The notes beneath the pieces were generated by a model. That model did no database searches. It saw only the letters and a program-made list of their open reading frames with translations, and was not told the DNA's origin. From an uncultured Anaerolineaceae bacterium (GTDB taxonomy: Bacteria; Chloroflexota; Anaerolineae; Anaerolineales; Anaerolineaceae): a stretch of 59,764 bases of DNA. Shown here in pieces: positions 30,765-38,041 of this stretch. The stretch covers positions 1 to 59,764 of the forward strand of contig CALMGN010000034.1 in NCBI GenBank assembly GCA_937863605.1, given 5' to 3'. How positions within the stretch are numbered: position 1 is the first letter of the stretch; the number at the start of each line of letters is the position of its first letter. The position numbers and the translations under genes are program-made.

Positions 30765-30793
30765 TTGACGCTGGATTAAATTGTCATTATAAT
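30765..30793 (+). promoter_or_regulatory. Strong sigma70 promoter of the potassium-transport unit
   Basis: TTGACG (30765-30770) and TATAAT (30788-30793) are exactly 17 bases apart, about 45 bases before the transporter start. The preceding gap 30473-30764 contains no gene. A GGTTGGT/ACCAGCC hairpin near 30530-30550 is the only clear structure in it. Confidence 0.85.
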
Positions 30794-30843
30794 CGCTCCC
30801 TTTGTCGTCTATTTTCGGTCAAGGAAGAAACGGCCAATAAAAC

Positions 30844-32784
30844 ATGAACATTGAAGATAATAGCGGTACAACCGTTCTCCGGCGGGATACCCAATTCAAG
30901 CCCAAGCCTTCCTGGCGGACGTGGTTAATTGGGAGACCTTTACCGACCGCTGATGCGCCGCACCAAACCATCGGCATTGTTGTTGGCTTAGCCGTTTTTG
31001 CCTCGGATGCGTTGTCATCTTCGGCGTATAGCACGCAAGAAATGCTGGTCATCCTTGCTGCACTGGGGTCCGGGGCCTACCAGTATATATTTCCGCTGTC
31101 GCTTGCCATCATCGTCCTGCTGGCCATTGTGGTTATCTCGTACGAGCAAACCATTCATGCCTATCCCAACGGGGGCGGTTCATATATCGTCTCCCGGGAT
31201 AATCTGGGAGAACTACCCGCCAAAATTGCCGCGGCGGCGCTGCTGACGGATTATATTCTGACGGTTGCGGTGTCGATCTCGTCTGGTGTTGCCAACCTGG
31301 TATCAGCGGTACCAGGCTTATTAGATTATCGCGTCTGGCTGGCGATTGCCATGGTGGTGTTGATCATGCTTATGAACCTGCGCGGTGTGAGAGAATCCGG
31401 AAATGCCATCGCCATTCCGACTTATTTTTTCATCGTGGCGACCCTAGTAGCGCTCGGTGTAGGGTTGTACAAGTACATCACCGGATCACTTGGCACAGTG
31501 GTTGATCCACCCTTATTGGAAACTGTGCATGTTACTCAGGGAGCCATCGTATTTTTGTTGCTGCGCGCTTTCTCATCCGGCACCTCTGCGCTAACAGGGG
31601 TTGAAGCAGTTTCCAATGGCATCCCGGCTTTCAAAGAACCGCGCTCCAGGAATGCCGGCATCACGTTAATCATCATGGCCTTTATTCTTGGCTCGATGAC
31701 CCTTGGGATTGCATTCTTGACTGCGCATATTCAGGCAATTCCTTCAGAACAAGAAACAGTCATTTCACAAATTGTCCGCACCGCCTATGGCAATCGCGGC
31801 ATTTTTTACCTGGCGACCGTGGTTTCCACGATGATCATCCTGATATTGGCGGCAAACACCTCATTTGCCGGGTTCCCGCGGCTGAGTGCGATCGTCGCGA
31901 TGGATGGTTTCCTGCCGCGCCAACTGGCCTACCGCGGCAGTCGGCTGGTTTATTCCAACGGGATTGTTCTCCTGGCTATCGTTGCAGCCGTGCTCATTCT
32001 GGTGTTCAATGCCAGCGTCACGCGTTTGATACCTCTGTATGCGATTGGCGTTTTCCTTTCTTTTACCTTGTCGCAGTTTGGTATGGCGCTGCGCTGGAAG
32101 AAAATCGGGGCGCTTAAAGGAGGCGCGCAGCTGATCGAACGCGGCTCGACCCTTACATATGAAAATGGTTGGCAATTTAAAATGATTATCAACGCCATTG
32201 GTGCTGTATTGACCGGCTTTGTTATGTTTGTGTTTGCCATTACGAAATTCGCCCAGGGCGCCTGGTTGGTGATCATCATTATCCCGTTGCTGGTCATTCT
32301 GTTTTCCGGAATTCGCCGTCATTACCGCAATCTGGCAGGCGATCTGTCCCTTGAAAACCAGGGTACGCCGCCACAAGTAAGCCGACAGAGAGTGATCCTG
32401 CCGCTTGGCGGCGTTCACCGCGGGACGCTGGCTGCGCTGCGCTATGCGCGAACTCTGAGTGATGACATTACTGCGGTGCATGTTTCAATCGACCCGGAGG
32501 AAACTGCCCGGATTCAACAAAAGTGGGAGATCTGGGGCGATGGACACCGCTTAGTGATCCTGGAATCGCAATACCGCACATTTATTGAGCCGTTACTGGA
32601 ATATATCGACGAAATTGACAACCTGCGGCAACCCAAAGAAGTCATCACCATCGTCGTGCCCGAATTTGTGCCGCGCCACTGGTGGTCGAACATGCTGCAC
32701 ACCAAAACCGCCAACACACTGAGCGCTGCGCTCCATTTCCGTAAGGATATTATCATCACCACTGTCCCGTACCAGGTGGACTAG
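30844..32784 (+). CDS. KimA-like APC-superfamily potassium transporter
   Basis: 646 residues, about 12 helices and a cytoplasmic C-terminal part from about residue 500. GLAVFASDALSSSAYSTQEM near the N-terminus and YPNGGGSYIVSRDNLG are characteristic of the KimA (formerly YdaO) branch of the APC superfamily, whose B. subtilis member is a proton-coupled high-affinity K+ importer. The C-terminal domain (RVILPLGGVHRGTLAALRYARTL) looks like a UspA-type fold, in line with KimA structures that bind c-di-AMP there. Two TrkA/RCK genes follow directly. An amino-acid permease is the alternative, but context favours potassium. Confidence 0.85.
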   Translation: MNIEDNSGTTVLRRDTQFKPKPSWRTWLIGRPLPTADAPHQTIGIVVGLAVFASDALSSSAYSTQEMLVILAALGSGAYQYIFPLSLAIIVLLAIVVISYEQTIHAYPNGGGSYIVSRDNLGELPAKIAAAALLTDYILTVAVSISSGVANLVSAVPGLLDYRVWLAIAMVVLIMLMNLRGVRESGNAIAIPTYFFIVATLVALGVGLYKYITGSLGTVVDPPLLETVHVTQGAIVFLLLRAFSSGTSALTGVEAVSNGIPAFKEPRSRNAGITLIIMAFILGSMTLGIAFLTAHIQAIPSEQETVISQIVRTAYGNRGIFYLATVVSTMIILILAANTSFAGFPRLSAIVAMDGFLPRQLAYRGSRLVYSNGIVLLAIVAAVLILVFNASVTRLIPLYAIGVFLSFTLSQFGMALRWKKIGALKGGAQLIERGSTLTYENGWQFKMIINAIGAVLTGFVMFVFAITKFAQGAWLVIIIIPLLVILFSGIRRHYRNLAGDLSLENQGTPPQVSRQRVILPLGGVHRGTLAALRYARTLSDDITAVHVSIDPEETARIQQKWEIWGDGHRLVILESQYRTFIEPLLEYIDEIDNLRQPKEVITIVVPEFVPRHWWSNMLHTKTANTLSAALHFRKDIIITTVPYQVD

Positions 32785-32811
32785 GAATCAGGACGAATAG
32801 AAGGATTAACC

Positions 32812-33471
32812 ATGAAAATTATCGTTGTAGGGTGCGGCAGGTTGGGCGCGGACCTGGCATATCGTCTCTCCAAGGCTGGCAACAACGTTGCGGTTGTGGA
32901 TACCCAGGAATCTGCCTTCAATAAATTACCGTCTGATTTTATCGGACGAATCCATGAAGGCAATGGATTGCAACAGGATGTACTCGTTCGCGCGGGTATC
33001 GAGACGGCGGACGGGTTGGCAGCTGTGACCGATTCGGATGCCATTAACGCCGTGGTGGCACGGGTTGCTCACCAAAAATATCATGTGTCCAATGTGGTTG
33101 CCCGCAATTATGACCCCGGTTTGCGGTCGCTGTACGAAGACCTGGGGCTGCAGGTGATCTCCTCGACCAGTTGGGGTGCCCAACGGGTGGAAGAACTGCT
33201 GTATGACTCTGATTTTTACTCGGTTTTTTCCGCTGGCAACGGCGAGGTCGAGATTTACGAGTTCAAAATTCCGCAGACATTCGACGGGAAAACACTCGCC
33301 GAGTTGTTAATCGACCAAACTTGCGTCCCCATCGCTCTGACCCGCGCCGGGAGAGCCGTATTGCCGGATGCACAAATGATCCTAAACGCCGAGGATGTCA
33401 TCCACTTTAGCGCGACCTTTGATGGAATCAACCGTCTGCGCTCCAGGCTGGAAGGTAAAGAGGAGGCCTGA
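32812..33471 (+). CDS. trkA: TrkA/RCK-domain potassium uptake regulator 1
   Basis: 219 residues: an RCK_N Rossmann domain beginning with IIVVGCGRLGADLA (nucleotide-binding Gly motif) and an acidic tip at VVDTQE, then an RCK_C domain (about 130-210) with PQTFDGKTLAEL and GRAVLPDAQMILNAEDV. These peripheral proteins bind NAD(H)/ATP or c-di-AMP and gate Trk/Ktr channels or, as the neighbours suggest, a KimA-type carrier. It is the second gene of the unit, 27 bases after the transporter. Confidence 0.92.
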   Translation: MKIIVVGCGRLGADLAYRLSKAGNNVAVVDTQESAFNKLPSDFIGRIHEGNGLQQDVLVRAGIETADGLAAVTDSDAINAVVARVAHQKYHVSNVVARNYDPGLRSLYEDLGLQVISSTSWGAQRVEELLYDSDFYSVFSAGNGEVEIYEFKIPQTFDGKTLAELLIDQTCVPIALTRAGRAVLPDAQMILNAEDVIHFSATFDGINRLRSRLEGKEEA

Positions 33472-33472
33472 T

Positions 33473-34156
33473 ATGTATGTGATTATCGCTGGCGGCGGTC
33501 GTACGGGAGCGCAATTGGCGCGAATTTTACTCGCTGAGAATCATCAGGTACGGTTGATCGATAACCGCCATACGGTGCTTGAGCACATCCACCGGGAATT
33601 GCCGACTGAAGTCATTTATGAGGGCAACCCGGTTGACCCAACTGTCTTGGAAGGCGCAGGCGCTGCAACCGCTGATGTTCTGGCGGCCTGCACCACCGAG
33701 GATGAGGCCAACCTGATCATTTGCTTTCTGGCCCGTAAAAAATTCAAGATTCCACGCACCATTGCGCGCATCAATAATCCCCGCAATGCCTGGCTTTTTG
33801 ATGACACATTCAATGTGGATGTGGCAGTGAACCAGGCATCAATTATGGCTTCGATCATCGAAGAAGAGATGTCGATGGGCGACATGATGACCTTGCTCAA
33901 ACTGCGCCGCGGGAATTACTCGCTGGTCGAGGAGAAAATTCCTGAAGGCGCACCGGCAATTGGGCAGCAGATTAAAGATATCGCCCTGCCAGAAAAATGC
34001 GTCATCGCAGCCATTATCCGCAGCGGTGAGGTGGTTGTCCCGCGCGGCGCAACTGTTTTCGAGGTTGGCGATGAAGTCCTGGCGGTTACAGATGTCGAGG
34101 GGGCGCGGCAATTGGCGAAATTTTTCGTCGGGACGCGAAAACCCAACGGTCGTTAG
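33473..34156 (+). CDS. trkA: TrkA/RCK-domain potassium uptake regulator 2
   Basis: 227 residues from ATG 33473, one base after the stop of the first TrkA gene and preceded by AGGAGG inside it, so translation is coupled. The longer frame from 33395 only overlaps the neighbour. RCK_N starts with VIIAGGGRTGAQLA and RCK_C has APAIGQQIKDIALPEKCVI and RGATVFEVGDEVLAV. The two paralogues may form a hetero-octameric ring, as for tandem RCK proteins. It ends 15 bases before the rpmH promoter. Confidence 0.92.
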   Translation: MYVIIAGGGRTGAQLARILLAENHQVRLIDNRHTVLEHIHRELPTEVIYEGNPVDPTVLEGAGAATADVLAACTTEDEANLIICFLARKKFKIPRTIARINNPRNAWLFDDTFNVDVAVNQASIMASIIEEEMSMGDMMTLLKLRRGNYSLVEEKIPEGAPAIGQQIKDIALPEKCVIAAIIRSGEVVVPRGATVFEVGDEVLAVTDVEGARQLAKFFVGTRKPNGR

Positions 34157-34171
34157 AAACCTCATTATTCT

Positions 34172-34200
34172 TTGACCATAAAGCAGGCTTAAGGTATAAT
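34172..34200 (+). promoter_or_regulatory. Strong sigma70 promoter of the rpmH operon
   Basis: TTGACC (34172-34177) and TATAAT (34195-34200) have a 17-base spacer. The leader to rpmH is about 120 bases long and untranslated. Confidence 0.85.
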
Positions 34201-34329
34201 TGCAACTTGCCTTCTGGCATGACCGCCCTGTGGGTTGCGGAAATGGCTAAACAACCCGGTTTACTCCATGTTTGGTGATTTGCGCAGAACACAGTGGTGC
34301 CATAACCTCCTTATTGAAAGGATCGTTTA

Positions 34330-34506
34330 ATGAGTACCAAACGGACTTATCAACCCAAAATCCGCCGCCGCCTTCGGGTGCATGGATTCCGCGCCCGGAT
34401 GGCAACCGCCGATGGTCGCGAAGTGCTGAAGCGCCGCCGCCTGCGTGGTCGCGTCCACCTGACGGTGTCCAAAAACAACCACGTCAAGAAAAACGTACGC
34501 TGGTAG
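34330..34506 (+). CDS. rpmH: Ribosomal protein bL34
   Basis: 58 residues. The core [20 protein letters not shown] followed by [17 protein letters not shown] is the unmistakable L34 sequence. It differs from the usual 44-46 residue form by a basic C-terminal tail ([12 protein letters not shown]). It is a structural protein of the 50S subunit near the exit-tunnel region. It heads the classic rpmH-rnpA-yidD-yidC-jag order and follows a strong promoter. Confidence 0.97.
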
Positions 34507-34569
34507 GCGGCTCACCTGTCTTGGTCCATCCACGAAGCAGGAAGGACAACCAAACGGACAGGTACATGG

Positions 34570-34929
34570 GTGAAACGCGCGTTTCGGCTAAGGCAAGCCA
34601 CCGACTTCTCGCGGGTGCGGCGAAATGGGAAATCCTTTCAGCACCCGTTGGTCGTATTGGTAGCATTGCCCAATGCAGAAGGAACTCTCCGCATTGGGGT
34701 ATCAGCCGGCAGGGCGGTCGGTACGGCAGTTGTCCGCAACCGGGCCAAACGCCAGCTGCGCGCCAGCATCGACCGGCTGCTGCCATACCTGGCTTCTGGC
34801 TGGGATTTGATTTTTTTGGCGCGTGCACCCATTGGGGTCGCTCATTTTGACAATATTTCGACTGGTGTGAGCTCGGTCCTGCACAGGGCAGGGCTGCTCC
34901 AGCGAGAAAGCGCCGAATTGAATGATTGA
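34570..34929 (+). CDS. rnpA: Ribonuclease P protein component
   Basis: 119 residues, GTG start. It has the N-terminal [20 protein letters not shown] and the RNR signature [12 protein letters not shown] (about 60-71) that contacts the P RNA. It helps the RNA subunit bind pre-tRNA and remove the 5' leader. It overlaps the yidD start by 8 bases, a coupled arrangement normal for this operon. Confidence 0.97.
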
Positions 34930-35200
34930 GAACGATTACCCCAATGAGCCGCGTTTGCGGGATTTGCCGGTTAATCTGCAAACTCTCTTCCGCTGGCCTT
35001 TCTTGGGATTGATTCGCCTTTATCAAAAAACGGTCTCCCCTTCCCTGCCCTCCAATACCTGCCGTTTCTACCCTTCGTGCTCTCACTACGGCTACCAGGC
35101 GATCTACAAACACGGCGCCTGGCGCGGCGTGGTTATGGCCATCTGGCGCGTCTTGCGCTGCAACCCCTGGAATCCAGGCGGTTTTGACCCGGTACCTTGA
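34922..35200 (+). CDS. yidD: Membrane protein insertion efficiency factor YidD
   Basis: 92 residues. The conserved block [20 protein letters not shown], with [12 protein letters not shown] and [15 protein letters not shown], is typical. It is a small amphipathic protein at the inner face of the membrane that assists YidC/Sec-dependent insertion. Its N-terminal 20 residues are a polar extension before the family core. The start overlaps rnpA. Confidence 0.97.
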
Positions 35201-35255
35201 TCTGCTTTTTGAATCGGGTATTGGGATTCAACCTTATGCTTAACAATCACACGGA

Positions 35256-36308
35256 ATGAATAAAAGAAAAAAAACTCTCATCTTTACCGTGATCCTGGCA
35301 GCTCTTCTGCTCACGTCCTGTTCCTCGGGGCTTTCCGGGAGCAGCTGGCCGGGGATCTCCACCAACGGTGACACATTTTATGTTGCCAACATGGCACATG
35401 TTTATGCCATTCGCGCAACCGACGGCTCTCAAATCTGGCGCTTCCCGGAAAAAGCAGCCCGGGTCATGTATTTCGCGGCGCCGGTCCTGGTCGATAATCA
35501 GCTAATTACTGGTGATTATCAAAAAATCCTCCATTCACTTAACCCGGCGACCGGCGCAGAGAATTGGACGTTTGAGGCGAATGGCCCCTGGATTGCCAGC
35601 CCGCTGGTAGTCAACGACACCATTATTGCCCCCAACGGTGACGGCACGCTATACGCTCTGGATCTGAACGGCAACCTGAAGTGGAAATTCACTGCTAAAC
35701 GCGCTCTCTGGTCGCAGCCGGTTGGAAACAGCGACACCGTTTTCCAGGCGTCGATGGACAAAACCATTTATGCCGTCGATATGGCAACCGGTTCATTGAA
35801 GTGGTCGAAGGATCTGGGCGGCGCAGTTATTTACTCGCCCACGCTCAGCGACGACGGGATGCTCTACGTTACCACCCTGGCGCGCGAACTGATCGCACTC
35901 AGCACCGATGACGGTGAAATCCAATGGCGTCGCAAATTTGAAGAGAGCCTGTGGAGCCAGCCAGTTATCCATGAGGATAACCTGTTCTTCGGCGATTTAA
36001 GCGGAAAGGCATACAGTGTCTCGCGGATGGACGGCACCGATATCTGGACGCAAGCCCTGAACGAGCCGGTGACTGGGAAACCCACCGTCACCGAAGATTC
36101 CGTCGTATTTGCGACCGAAAATGGCACCCTGGTTGCCTTGAGTTTTACCGGCGACCGGTTGTGGTCCAAGACGATCGAGGGCAAGTTGTACAATGGCCCC
36201 GTTCAATTCAATGACAAGCTGCTGATCGGCATTGCGCTGGGCGAAAGCCCGCTCAAACTGGTGACCACCGCCGGTCAGGATGTTTGGACCTTCATCCCGC
36301 CGAAGTAG
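35256..36308 (+). CDS. PQQ-type beta-propeller lipoprotein (BamB-like)
   Basis: 350 residues. The signal peptide ends in a lipobox LLTSC (Cys22). The mature protein has repeated blades of the PQQ/BamB type: VYAIRATDGSQIWRF, LHSLNPATGAENWTF, LYALDLNGNLKWKF, IYAVDMATGSLKWSK, LIALSTDDGEIQWRR, AYSVSRMDGTDIWTQ and LVALSFTGDRLWSK, roughly seven to eight in all. It would sit on the outer face of the cytoplasmic membrane. Between yidD and yidC this position is unusual. A helper role in membrane-protein insertion is inferred from location only, since the fold is a generic binding platform. No outer-membrane Bam machinery is visible here. Confidence 0.88.
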   Translation: MNKRKKTLIFTVILAALLLTSCSSGLSGSSWPGISTNGDTFYVANMAHVYAIRATDGSQIWRFPEKAARVMYFAAPVLVDNQLITGDYQKILHSLNPATGAENWTFEANGPWIASPLVVNDTIIAPNGDGTLYALDLNGNLKWKFTAKRALWSQPVGNSDTVFQASMDKTIYAVDMATGSLKWSKDLGGAVIYSPTLSDDGMLYVTTLARELIALSTDDGEIQWRRKFEESLWSQPVIHEDNLFFGDLSGKAYSVSRMDGTDIWTQALNEPVTGKPTVTEDSVVFATENGTLVALSFTGDRLWSKTIEGKLYNGPVQFNDKLLIGIALGESPLKLVTTAGQDVWTFIPPK

Positions 36309-36317
36309 GAGCGAACC

Positions 36318-37121
36318 GTGAACATTTGGGATTCGTTAATCATTACCCCGTTTATTAATGTACTGTTATTTATCTACAACGCAATTGGTCAGAACTTCGG
36401 TGTTGCAATTATCCTGTTCACGCTGGTAATCCGTCTGATCACGCACCCGCTTATGGTGAAACAAATCAAGGGCGCGCAAGGCATGCAGGATCTGCAAAAA
36501 AACGAGAAGTGGCTGAAAACTCAGGAGAAGTACAAAGGCGATAAAGAAAAGTTGGCCCAGGAACAGATGGCGCTCTACAAAGAGCTGGGTATTAACCCCT
36601 TCTCGTCCTGCCTGCCGACCTTGATCCAGCTGCCAATCATCTTTGGTTTGTATCAAGCGGTCATTTACGCCATGGCAACTACCCCGATTGACTTACTGAA
36701 CCTCATCCGGCATATCTACCCTGGCTTGCTGAAGGTCGAGTCGCTCATTCCGCTTAACAACCGCTTTTTGTGGATGGACCTCTCGCAGCCGGAACGGTTG
36801 AACATTCCGGGTCTCGAGTTTGGCATTCCGGTGATGGTCGTCGTGGTTGTGTTGACCACCTACATCCAGGGCAAGCTGATCCAGCCTGCCAATCCAAACC
36901 CGAAGGATCAGACCGCCGCCATGGGCAGCATGATGAATCTGTACATGCCGTTGTTCATGGGCTACCTGGCCTATACCCTGGCTTCTGGCCTGGCGCTGTA
37001 CTTCGTGGCCTCGAACCTTGTTGGTATCGGCCAGTATGCCATGCTCGGCAAAGTTAACTGGGCAAATGTTTTTCCGTTCTTGAAGAAAAAGGACGAAAAA
37101 GCCGGCAAGGGGAAGAAATAA
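36318..37121 (+). CDS. yidC: Membrane protein insertase YidC
   Basis: 267 residues, GTG start. The short Gram-positive-like (SpoIIIJ/Oxa1) form without the large periplasmic domain. The conserved Arg in the hydrophilic groove is Arg39 (ILFTLVIRLITHPLMVKQ). A charged cytoplasmic hairpin (QKNEKWLKTQEKYKGDKEK) and the YKELGINPFSSCLPTLIQLPI motif follow. The C-terminal LGKVNW...KKKDEKAGKGKK tail is basic and likely contacts the ribosome. It inserts and folds inner-membrane proteins. It follows the propeller lipoprotein by 9 bases. Confidence 0.97.
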   Translation: MNIWDSLIITPFINVLLFIYNAIGQNFGVAIILFTLVIRLITHPLMVKQIKGAQGMQDLQKNEKWLKTQEKYKGDKEKLAQEQMALYKELGINPFSSCLPTLIQLPIIFGLYQAVIYAMATTPIDLLNLIRHIYPGLLKVESLIPLNNRFLWMDLSQPERLNIPGLEFGIPVMVVVVVLTTYIQGKLIQPANPNPKDQTAAMGSMMNLYMPLFMGYLAYTLASGLALYFVASNLVGIGQYAMLGKVNWANVFPFLKKKDEKAGKGKK

Positions 37122-37189
37122 CAACCGGTGAAGGCTGAAAAAAGCCTCTCACCCTTAATATGCAGAAGGAAGCAATCATTGAGGCTGAG

Positions 37190-37984
37190 ATGAGTCAAGA
37201 GAAAACAACATTGGAAATCATTGCACCATCCGTCGAAGAAGCAGTTGCCAAAGGTTTAAGCCAGCTCGGTTTATCGGAAGACGCCGTTGAGGTTGAGGTG
37301 CTTGACTCGGGGAGCAAAGGCTTCCTTGGGCTTGGCACCCGCCTGGCGCGGATCCGGCTAAAGATCAAAGACCTCTCTGGCAACCTGGATGCTGGACCGC
37401 GGCCTGCGCCGCGCAAACCGGCAGCCCGCCAAAAACCGGTTGCCCCCGTTGCCGAAATGCCGGTGCAAAAAGGTTCCGTTCCGTCAGCCGAAGATGCTGA
37501 CCTGGAACCGGTGTTAAAAATCGCCGAACAGGTGGTTGGCGAACTGCTCGAAAAAATGCGCGTCCCCGCTCGACTGAAAGCGCAAATTGTGCCGCCAGTG
37601 GACGAGAATGACCAGCGTTTGATCCTGGTGGAAGTCCAGGGGGATGATCTGTCTATTCTCATTGGCCGCCGCTCCGAGACCTTGAATGCGCTGCAGTACA
37701 TCAGCAGCCTGATCGTGTCGAAGGAAGCCGGTCAATGGGTGCCGCTGTTAATCGATGTACAGGGCTACCGCGCCCGCCGGGAACGCCAGCTGCGCGTCCT
37801 GGCTCGCCGCATGGCTGAACAGGTTAACCATACCGGCCGGCGCATGGCGCTGGAACCCATGCCTGCCAACGAACGGCGCATCATCCACCTGGAACTGCGC
37901 GAACATCCGGATGTCACCACCGAGAGCGTTGGCGAAGAACCGAACCGTAAGGTCACCATCGTTCCCAAGAAACCAGCTCAATAA
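37190..37984 (+). CDS. jag: Jag/KhpB RNA-binding protein
   Basis: 264 residues from ATG 37190, which has GAGG just in front; the ATG at 37160 lacks a binding site. All three domains are present: Jag_N (about 1-50, KGFLGLG), a Pro/Ala-rich linker, a KH-II domain around DDLSILIGRRSETLNALQYI, and R3H with HTGRRMALEPMPANERRIIH. The family binds small RNAs and mRNAs and affects cell elongation and division in Gram-positives. A GGTGAAGGCT hairpin at 37127-37153 lies between yidC and jag. The operon ends at a strong terminator. Confidence 0.93.
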   Translation: MSQEKTTLEIIAPSVEEAVAKGLSQLGLSEDAVEVEVLDSGSKGFLGLGTRLARIRLKIKDLSGNLDAGPRPAPRKPAARQKPVAPVAEMPVQKGSVPSAEDADLEPVLKIAEQVVGELLEKMRVPARLKAQIVPPVDENDQRLILVEVQGDDLSILIGRRSETLNALQYISSLIVSKEAGQWVPLLIDVQGYRARRERQLRVLARRMAEQVNHTGRRMALEPMPANERRIIHLELREHPDVTTESVGEEPNRKVTIVPKKPAQ

Positions 37985-37996
37985 ATCTACAAGCGA

Positions 37997-38041
37997 CGAA
38001 GGCATCGCGCAGGGGCTTCCCGGGCGATGCCTTCGTTTTTC
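37997..38041 (+). terminator. Terminator of the rpmH-jag operon
   Basis: GAAGGCATCGC (37998-38008) pairs with GCGATGCCTTC (38024-38034), followed by TTTTT. Confidence 0.9.

What the first reader, a model, noticed from the sequence alone, without database searches (positions are those of the whole stretch)
30765..34156. KimA-like carrier with two RCK proteins under one strong promoter
Seen: a KimA-type transporter followed by two TrkA/RCK genes (27 bases and 1 base spacing). Known: RCK proteins normally regulate Trk/Ktr channels, while KimA is regulated by c-di-AMP through its own cytoplasmic domain. A carrier with external RCK subunits would be an unusual regulatory design.
Basis: partly seen in the sequence, partly recalled or inferred. 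Interest (0 to 1): 0.55.

Follow-up and report, generated by a model that had tools for sequence, protein, structure and literature searches.

The report
Potassium carrier with paired RCK regulators
A potassium carrier gene (kimA) shares an operon with two genes for RCK proteins, regulators best known from potassium channels, and the same regulator pair sits beside quite different potassium transporters in other bacteria, so it may be a plug-in control unit shared by carriers, pumps and channels.

Summary
In detail: kimA (30844-32784), rckA (32812-33471) and rckB (33473-34156), gaps 27 and 1 nt, lie behind an 11-of-12 promoter match. KimA is a true B. subtilis KimA homologue; RckA and RckB are two different RCK proteins, the only TrkA_N proteins found in this (92% complete) genome, in which no TrkH and no Ion_trans_2 channel was found. 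In 13 of 14 genomes of the order the pair follows kimA; none of the 14 has TrkH. KimA-pair linkage recurs in Armatimonadota and Actinomycetota, as in the published Rv2690c/ceoB neighbourhood, whose 'Trk system' (CeoB, CeoC) is described without a membrane part in the passages I saw. The pair is not private to KimA: close relatives adjoin Na,K-ATPase-like pumps and, in some Actinomycetota, TrkH; many free-standing pairs exist in the sister clade. The genome encodes a c-di-AMP synthase domain; the linked KimA lost part of the c-di-AMP contact loop and has no c-di-AMP riboswitch, but this erosion is not significant after correction for relatedness. Best reading: RckA/RckB are detachable nucleotide-sensing subunits, here serving KimA. 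Direct binding is inferred. New variant of a known kind.

The parts
30765..30793 (+). sigma-70-like promoter TTGACG-17-TATAAT before kimA
   Evidence: 11 of 12 consensus positions
30844..32784 (+). kimA: KUP-type K+ carrier with C-terminal cytosolic domain (646 aa)
   Evidence: KimA 6s3k E 1.6e-144; AA_permease_2; K+-site residues D55, Y62, T251, Y399 kept
32110..32181 (+). about 17-residue insertion in the TMH10-11 loop of KimA (cytoplasmic by alternation from the TMH8-9 loop, inference); candidate docking element
   Evidence: loop 26-29 residues in 20 of 20 KimAs co-directional with a full-length RckA, 9-11 in 23 of 23 with a short RckA; also in some unlinked relatives
32698..32709 (+). KimA c-di-AMP contact loop, H619-T620-K621-T622 in place of B. 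subtilis H579-N580-Q581-S582
   Evidence: alignment; contacts from PMC10284832 passages
32812..33471 (+). rckA: RCK protein, TrkA_N + TrkA_C (219 aa)
   Evidence: Pfam; closest solved TM1088A, E 2.6e-20
32830..32910 (+). RckA nucleotide-binding motif GxGxxG...D
   Evidence: G7, G12 and D30 invariant in 18 RckA
33473..34156 (+). rckB: RCK protein, TrkA_N + TrkA_C (227 aa)
   Evidence: Pfam; TrkA 4j9u E 1.5e-40, TM1088B E 1.1e-26
33491..33562 (+). RckB nucleotide-binding motif GxGxxG...D

Best explanation
The operon encodes a K+ uptake carrier, KimA, and its own detachable two-component RCK regulator. RckA and RckB probably form a mixed cytoplasmic ring or dimer that binds adenine nucleotides (NAD(H), ADP/ATP) in the TrkA_N domains and possibly ions in the TrkA_C domains, docks on the cytoplasmic face of the KimA dimer and switches the carrier on or off. 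The pair is an interchangeable module: relatives are attached to KimA, to KimA-like carriers, to Na,K-ATPase-like pumps and to TrkH. Shown: gene order, conservation, no TrkH found, partner changes on a supported tree, intact motifs. Inferred: direct binding, sign of regulation, ligand.
For: Operon spacing and order-wide conservation, 13 of 14 genomes. No TrkH in 14 of 14. Only two TrkA_N proteins found in the genome, these two; no Ion_trans_2 channel found. KimA-pair linkage in Actinomycetota loci found through RckB, not KimA: 29 of 50 loci viewed, with long KimA matches in the 9 of these re-fetched with wide flanks; also in Armatimonadota L159; three gene orders (behind, before, divergent). 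1 of the 30 best RckB genomes there has TrkH against 85 of 149 overall. In the Chloroflexota-centred set all 32 pairs of the window's clade, 25 of them from the whole-genome draw, have at least RckA beside a transporter. Clade split 100/97 support; starred branches force at least 4 changes of the KimA label and 2 of TrkH. Literature: deletion of ceoBC makes the cell slightly more sensitive to low K+ (PMC6375644 passages); ceoB and Rv2690c transposon mutants share a phenotype (PMC12216072 passages).
Against: No physical or functional datum for the window proteins. Of 90 phylum genomes with a strong KimA match only 26 were seen with it beside the pair. KimA occurs without an RckB match at E<=1e-20 in several genomes (for example G119, G135, G142, G133), so the pair is not required for KimA. 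75 of 117 RckA loci have no recognised transporter in front; none of these falls in the window's clade in the Chloroflexota set, but in Actinomycetota G293 shows no partner within about 3.7 kb upstream and G224 (L314) none. Other possible clients without RCK exist in the genome: one Na_H_Exchanger and two P2-type ATPases. [quoted passage not shown] The long KimA loop also occurs in genomes without an RckB match.
Confidence: 0.6

Rival explanations
1. The pair is a soluble K+-homeostasis regulator that serves several transporters in trans; its place behind kimA is co-expression only.
For: 75 of 117 RckA loci have no recognised transporter in front. The own genome holds a second, unlinked KimA, an unlinked Na_H_Exchanger and two P2-type ATPases.
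Against: In the window's own RckB clade all 32 pairs of the Chloroflexota-centred set have at least RckA beside a transporter; the free-standing loci there belong to the other clade, whose RckA matches only over TrkA_N.
Confidence: 0.22
2. The RCK genes are leftovers of a lost Trk/Ktr system that happen to lie behind kimA and do nothing to it.
For: Close relatives adjoin TrkH in some genomes.
Against: Both frames and nucleotide motifs intact; linkage kept in 13 of 14 genomes that all lack TrkH; linkage with KimA needs several changes on the tree.
Confidence: 0.05
3. RckA/RckB took over the role of c-di-AMP on KimA, whose own pocket decayed.
For: HNQ loop intact in 6 of 43 co-linked against 88 of 104 unlinked KimA; window loop is HTKT while the unlinked KimA of the same genome keeps HNQT; c-di-AMP riboswitch found at 5 of 8 Bacillota kimA loci, at none of 20 loci of the window's order, class and one further family, and not at the window.
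Against: Not significant after correction for relatedness: of 12 independent pairs about 2 agree, 0 oppose, 10 tie. Nine further co-linked KimA keep N and Q with Y for H. Divergent-linked KimA keep HNQ in 5 of 6. Arg359 (B. subtilis R337) and His619 are kept; c-di-AMP synthase domain in 14 of 14 genomes of the order; unlinked paralogues of G003 and G071 also carry HTNT.
Confidence: 0.2

Closest known systems
KimA of Bacillus subtilis (KUP family)
   Same: fold by homology, length, K+-site residues, C-terminal cytosolic domain
   Different: 'RCK' does not occur in the main text of PMC6994465 and no RCK partner of KimA appears in the PMC10284832 passages I saw; c-di-AMP loop eroded and riboswitch absent here
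Mycobacterial CeoB/CeoC ('Trk system') beside Rv2690c
   Same: two RCK proteins with an adjacent gene; Actinomycetota loci sampled here show two unlike RCK genes beside KimA
   Different: kimA is divergent in most Actinomycetota loci seen; that Rv2690c is KimA-like and divergent is recalled, no mycobacterial sequence was compared by name
TM1088A/TM1088B of Thermotoga maritima
   Same: two-subunit RCK assembly in one solved entry (3l4b); closest solved relative of RckA and among the closest of RckB
   Different: TM1088A chain is 143 aa, N-domain only; its ring structure and association with TrkH are recalled
KtrAB / TrkAH
   Same: RCK subunits for K+ uptake
   Different: membrane part is a TrkH/KtrB channel, not found here
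KhtTU / CpeAB / KefC
   Same: RCK-type control of a carrier rather than a channel (PMC10117811 passages; KefC recalled)
   Different: those carriers are K+/H+ antiporters, not a KUP importer

Membership tests
KimA (KUP family) | full-length similarity incl. cytosolic domain | tested here: met
   E 1.6e-144 over residues 25-644
KimA (KUP family) | K+ site D36, Y43, T230, Y377 | tested here: met
   D55, Y62, T251, Y399
KimA (KUP family) | c-di-AMP pocket R337, H579, N580, Q581, S582 | tested here: inconclusive
   R and H kept, N-Q-S replaced by T-K-T; binding not testable
KimA (KUP family) | ydaO/yuaA riboswitch upstream | tested here: not met
   no Rfam match at E<=1; control rings at 5 of 8 Bacillota loci. 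Not a defining feature of the protein family
RCK / TrkA proteins | TrkA_N and TrkA_C domains | tested here: met
   both proteins
RCK / TrkA proteins | GxGxxG...D/E nucleotide motif | tested here: met
   both proteins
RCK_C c-di-AMP receptors | dinucleotide signature quoted in PMC10117811 | tested here: inconclusive
   absent in both, but also absent in 23 of 23 TrkH-linked control RCKs, so the test has no positive control
Trk/Ktr channel system | TrkH/KtrB membrane subunit | tested here: not met
   no PF02386 match in the genome, 92% complete, 0 of 14 in the order
CeoB/CeoC type locus | two unlike RCK genes beside an APC/KimA gene without TrkH | tested here: met
   the type locus itself is known here from papers and recall

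The most novel reading that the evidence does not exclude
RckA/RckB is a transporter-independent gating unit: one family of two-subunit RCK assemblies controls K+ machines of unrelated folds, namely KUP carriers, Na,K-ATPase-like P-type pumps and TrkH channels, and the published mycobacterial 'Trk system' without a pore is in truth a KimA-type carrier with this regulator.
Probability: 0.4. Interest if true: 0.82.

Novelty: new variant of a known kind. Interest (0 to 1): 0.6.

Why it matters
RCK domains are studied mainly as channel gates. If one pair regulates a proton-coupled carrier and, in relatives, ATP-driven pumps, gating logic is separable from the transport fold. It would also offer a pore for K+ uptake attributed to CeoB/CeoC, two TrkA proteins described as a transporter without a named membrane part in the passages I saw (PMC13163235 and PMC4553272), and it makes that question testable in harmless organisms.

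Tried and rejected
KimA-RCK or pump-RCK fusion proteins: open frames with long extensions were listed. L141 and L213, next to KimA, lie in another frame than KimA (arithmetic on the coordinates, not a call); the f26 long frames are Na_H_Exchanger-TrkA_N-TrkA_C antiporters (two of three scanned), not KimA. The other long frames were not followed. No fusion found among those looked at. Recurrent neighbours of the free-standing pairs were clustered; the families found were not followed up.

c-di-AMP replacement idea: raw counts strong, not significant on the tree, kept as a rival only. Some 'unlinked' KimA of that count lie near contig ends or in short loci, so a few may be mislabelled. Long KimA loop as an RCK-specific dock: weakened, because G119, G135 and G142 carry it without an RckB match. 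RCK_C c-di-AMP signature: no positive control.

Limits of the census: 124 loci of 116 genomes (100; 24 earlier ones, two of them, L006 and L011, unlinked second KimA copies); 112 genomes gave an RckA over 125 bits; 135 of 151 had an RckB match (match table capped), so 19 genomes were not fetched; four (G029, G061, G069, G143) gave none over the cut-off. L005 and L209 are the same place. Two loci counted as without transporter (L245, L264) have TrkH 0.7-0.8 kb in front, just over my 700-base limit. In L199 RckA adjoins the ATPase but RckB lies about 5.6 kb away. L138 was dropped from the tree for lack of an RckA. In Actinomycetota I viewed the 30 best loci with flanks of at most 1.5 kb and 20 places chosen by hand, out of 118 genomes with a match; 10 of 50 showed no partner. 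Twenty places of the 30 best were re-fetched wider, among them nine of those ten: five (G175, G245, G223, G190, G212) have a KimA match 2.5-3.9 kb away, one (G293) none, three (G198, G234, G283) are cut by the contig end. The KimA/TrkH exclusion (17 both, 73 KimA only, 38 TrkH only, 23 neither; Fisher p 6.6e-8) is not corrected for relatedness.
Full report
OBSERVATION. Three + strand genes, kimA 30844-32784, rckA 32812-33471 and rckB 33473-34156, gaps 27 and 1 nt; rckA and rckB each have an AG-rich stretch at ribosome-binding distance. A TTGACG-17-TATAAT promoter match lies at 30765-30793. KimA matches solved B. subtilis KimA along residues 25-644. RckA and RckB are unlike each other: RckA is nearest to TM1088A, RckB to TrkA and TM1088B. 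Both hold TrkA_N and TrkA_C and the nucleotide motif.

GENOME. In the window's genome (2.86 Mb, 299 contigs, 92% complete) searches found no TrkH, no Ion_trans_2 channel, one Na_H_Exchanger, two P2-type ATPases with PEGLT/PEGLP motifs and no RCK in the flanks held, and no TrkA_N protein other than these two. A second KimA (62% identical, G000:C10) stands without RCK genes. Kup and KdpA were not searched. Named relatives of its KimA include many Chloroflexota, some labelled Anaerolineales; the window is probably from that group (inference).

ORDER AND PHYLUM. In a draw of 151 genomes, 14 belong to the order or closer, the window's included: 14 have KimA, none TrkH, 14 have a c-di-AMP synthase domain, and in 13 the pair follows kimA; the last, G023, has a KimA-like carrier, a P-type ATPase and then the pair. 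Three genomes of the class without KimA all have TrkH. Over the draw KimA and TrkH avoid each other (17 both, 73 KimA only, 38 TrkH only, 23 neither), uncorrected for relatedness. Of the 90 genomes with a strong KimA match, 26 were seen with it beside the pair.

THE PAIR IS A MODULE. An RckB profile hits 135 of 151 genomes. Of 117 RckA loci examined (one place counted twice) 27 adjoin KimA, 9 a P-type ATPase, 4 TrkH, 1 a KimA-like carrier alone, 1 an amino-acid-permease-type protein, and 75 none recognised, often with a USP-like gene in front or divergent. The RckB tree of 126 rows splits in two (100/97 support on 44 rows). The window's clade: 32 rows, KimA 22, ATPase 9, KimA-like 1, no TrkH and none free-standing (in L199 only RckA adjoins the ATPase). 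Seven of these rows came from genome contigs through KimA and are biased to it, the other 25 from the whole-genome draw. The other clade: 94 rows, 75 free-standing, 14 KimA, 4 TrkH, 1 permease; in the free-standing and TrkH-linked rows RckA matches the profile only over the N-domain. In 5 of 9 ATPase-linked rows it is RckB that is short. The ATPase tested is nearest in the PDB to Na,K- and H,K-ATPase alpha chains (one sequence); 11 of 15 printed carry PEGLLPT and 7 of 15 SNxPE, which I recall as Na,K-type signatures.

SECOND PHYLUM. With a clade profile (A4) RckB was sought in 149 genomes of the phylum of IMCC26256, an Actinomycetota record: 118 have a match at E<=1e-30. Of 50 loci viewed, 29 adjoin KimA (24 divergent, one of these also near an ATPase; 5 co-directional), 6 an ATPase, 3 TrkH, 2 both ATPase and TrkH, 10 nothing seen. 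Wider flanks show long KimA matches (703 to 844 bits) in the nine KimA-linked loci re-fetched, all five co-directional ones included. So the window's clade does include TrkH-linked members there, against its purity in the Chloroflexota set. Of the 30 best RckB genomes 1 has TrkH, against 85 of 149; of 29 KimA-linked genomes 4 do. With these loci added, a 91-row RckB tree needs at least 9 partner changes.

C-DI-AMP. Contacts in B. subtilis KimA include R337, H579, N580, Q581 and S582 (PMC10284832 passages). The window has R, H, T, K, T; its unlinked paralogue keeps HNQT. HNQ is intact in 6 of 43 co-linked, 5 of 6 divergent-linked and 88 of 104 unlinked KimA; nine more co-linked have YNQ. Independent contrasts are too few to support a link. 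The riboswitch is absent at the window and in 20 loci (16 of the order, 3 of the class, 1 of another family; three hold under 260 bases upstream and two are tandems whose first promoter is outside), and present in 5 of 8 Bacillota loci. Erosion is suggestive only.

LITERATURE. Papers call CeoB and CeoC, two TrkA proteins, the low-affinity K+ transporter (PMC13163235 passages; PMC4553272 passages, which also name other putative K+ channels). In PMC6375644, PMC12136442, PMC13163235 and PMC4553272 the terms Rv2690 and TrkH do not occur in the main text. [quoted passage not shown] PMC12216072 (passages) notes the adjacent Rv2690c and a shared mutant phenotype. PMC10117811 (passages) lists KimA-like Vnz_27465 and RCK_C protein Vnz_27460 and says that, of six RCK_C domains, only two others bind c-di-AMP; that the two genes are neighbours is inferred from their numbers. 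Ten library searches, read as listings, showed no title or abstract start that treats KimA with RCK subunits; the library is open access only.

MECHANISM. Best reading: a mixed RckA/RckB assembly senses nucleotide state and gates KimA from the cytoplasm. The KimA TMH10-11 loop is lengthened in 20 of 20 KimAs co-directional with a full RckA and in 0 of 23 with a short one, but also in some unlinked relatives, three of them from genomes without an RckB match, so it is a candidate dock, no more. Binding, direction and ligand are inferred.

VERDICT. Real, conserved and unusual in its partner; RCK control of carriers has precedents in K+/H+ antiporters. The wider module is the interesting part. Interest 0.6.

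Noticed in passing
L179, L193, L195, L199, L200, L206, L256-L258 and L295, L296, L306-L308, L312, L321, L322: P-type ATPases (one tested: nearest to Na,K-ATPase alpha) directly beside an RckA-RckB pair, mostly in front of it.
   Followed up: partly
L048, L052, L069, L076 and many others: A USP-like gene (about 142 aa) often precedes a short RckA (TrkA_N only) and RckB, behind KimA, TrkH or nothing.
   Followed up: partly
L194:6350-8602 and L193:625-2469: KimA-like carriers without a Pfam match at E<=1e-5; the L194 protein matches the KimA cytosolic domain.
   Followed up: partly
L033 (G000:C10:252-2189): Second, unlinked KimA of the same genome keeps the HNQT c-di-AMP loop.
   Followed up: partly
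L048: One locus holds KimA-USP-RckA-RckB and, divergent, TrkH with its own RCK: two K+ systems with separate RCKs side by side.
   Followed up: no
window 34172-38000: Downstream lie genes that read like rpmH, rnpA, yidD, a PQQ-repeat lipoprotein, yidC and jag (named by eye), with an 11-of-12 promoter match at 34172-34200 before rpmH.
   Followed up: no
L268-L270: Na_H_Exchanger-TrkA_N-TrkA_C antiporters with a second RCK match nearby.
   Followed up: no
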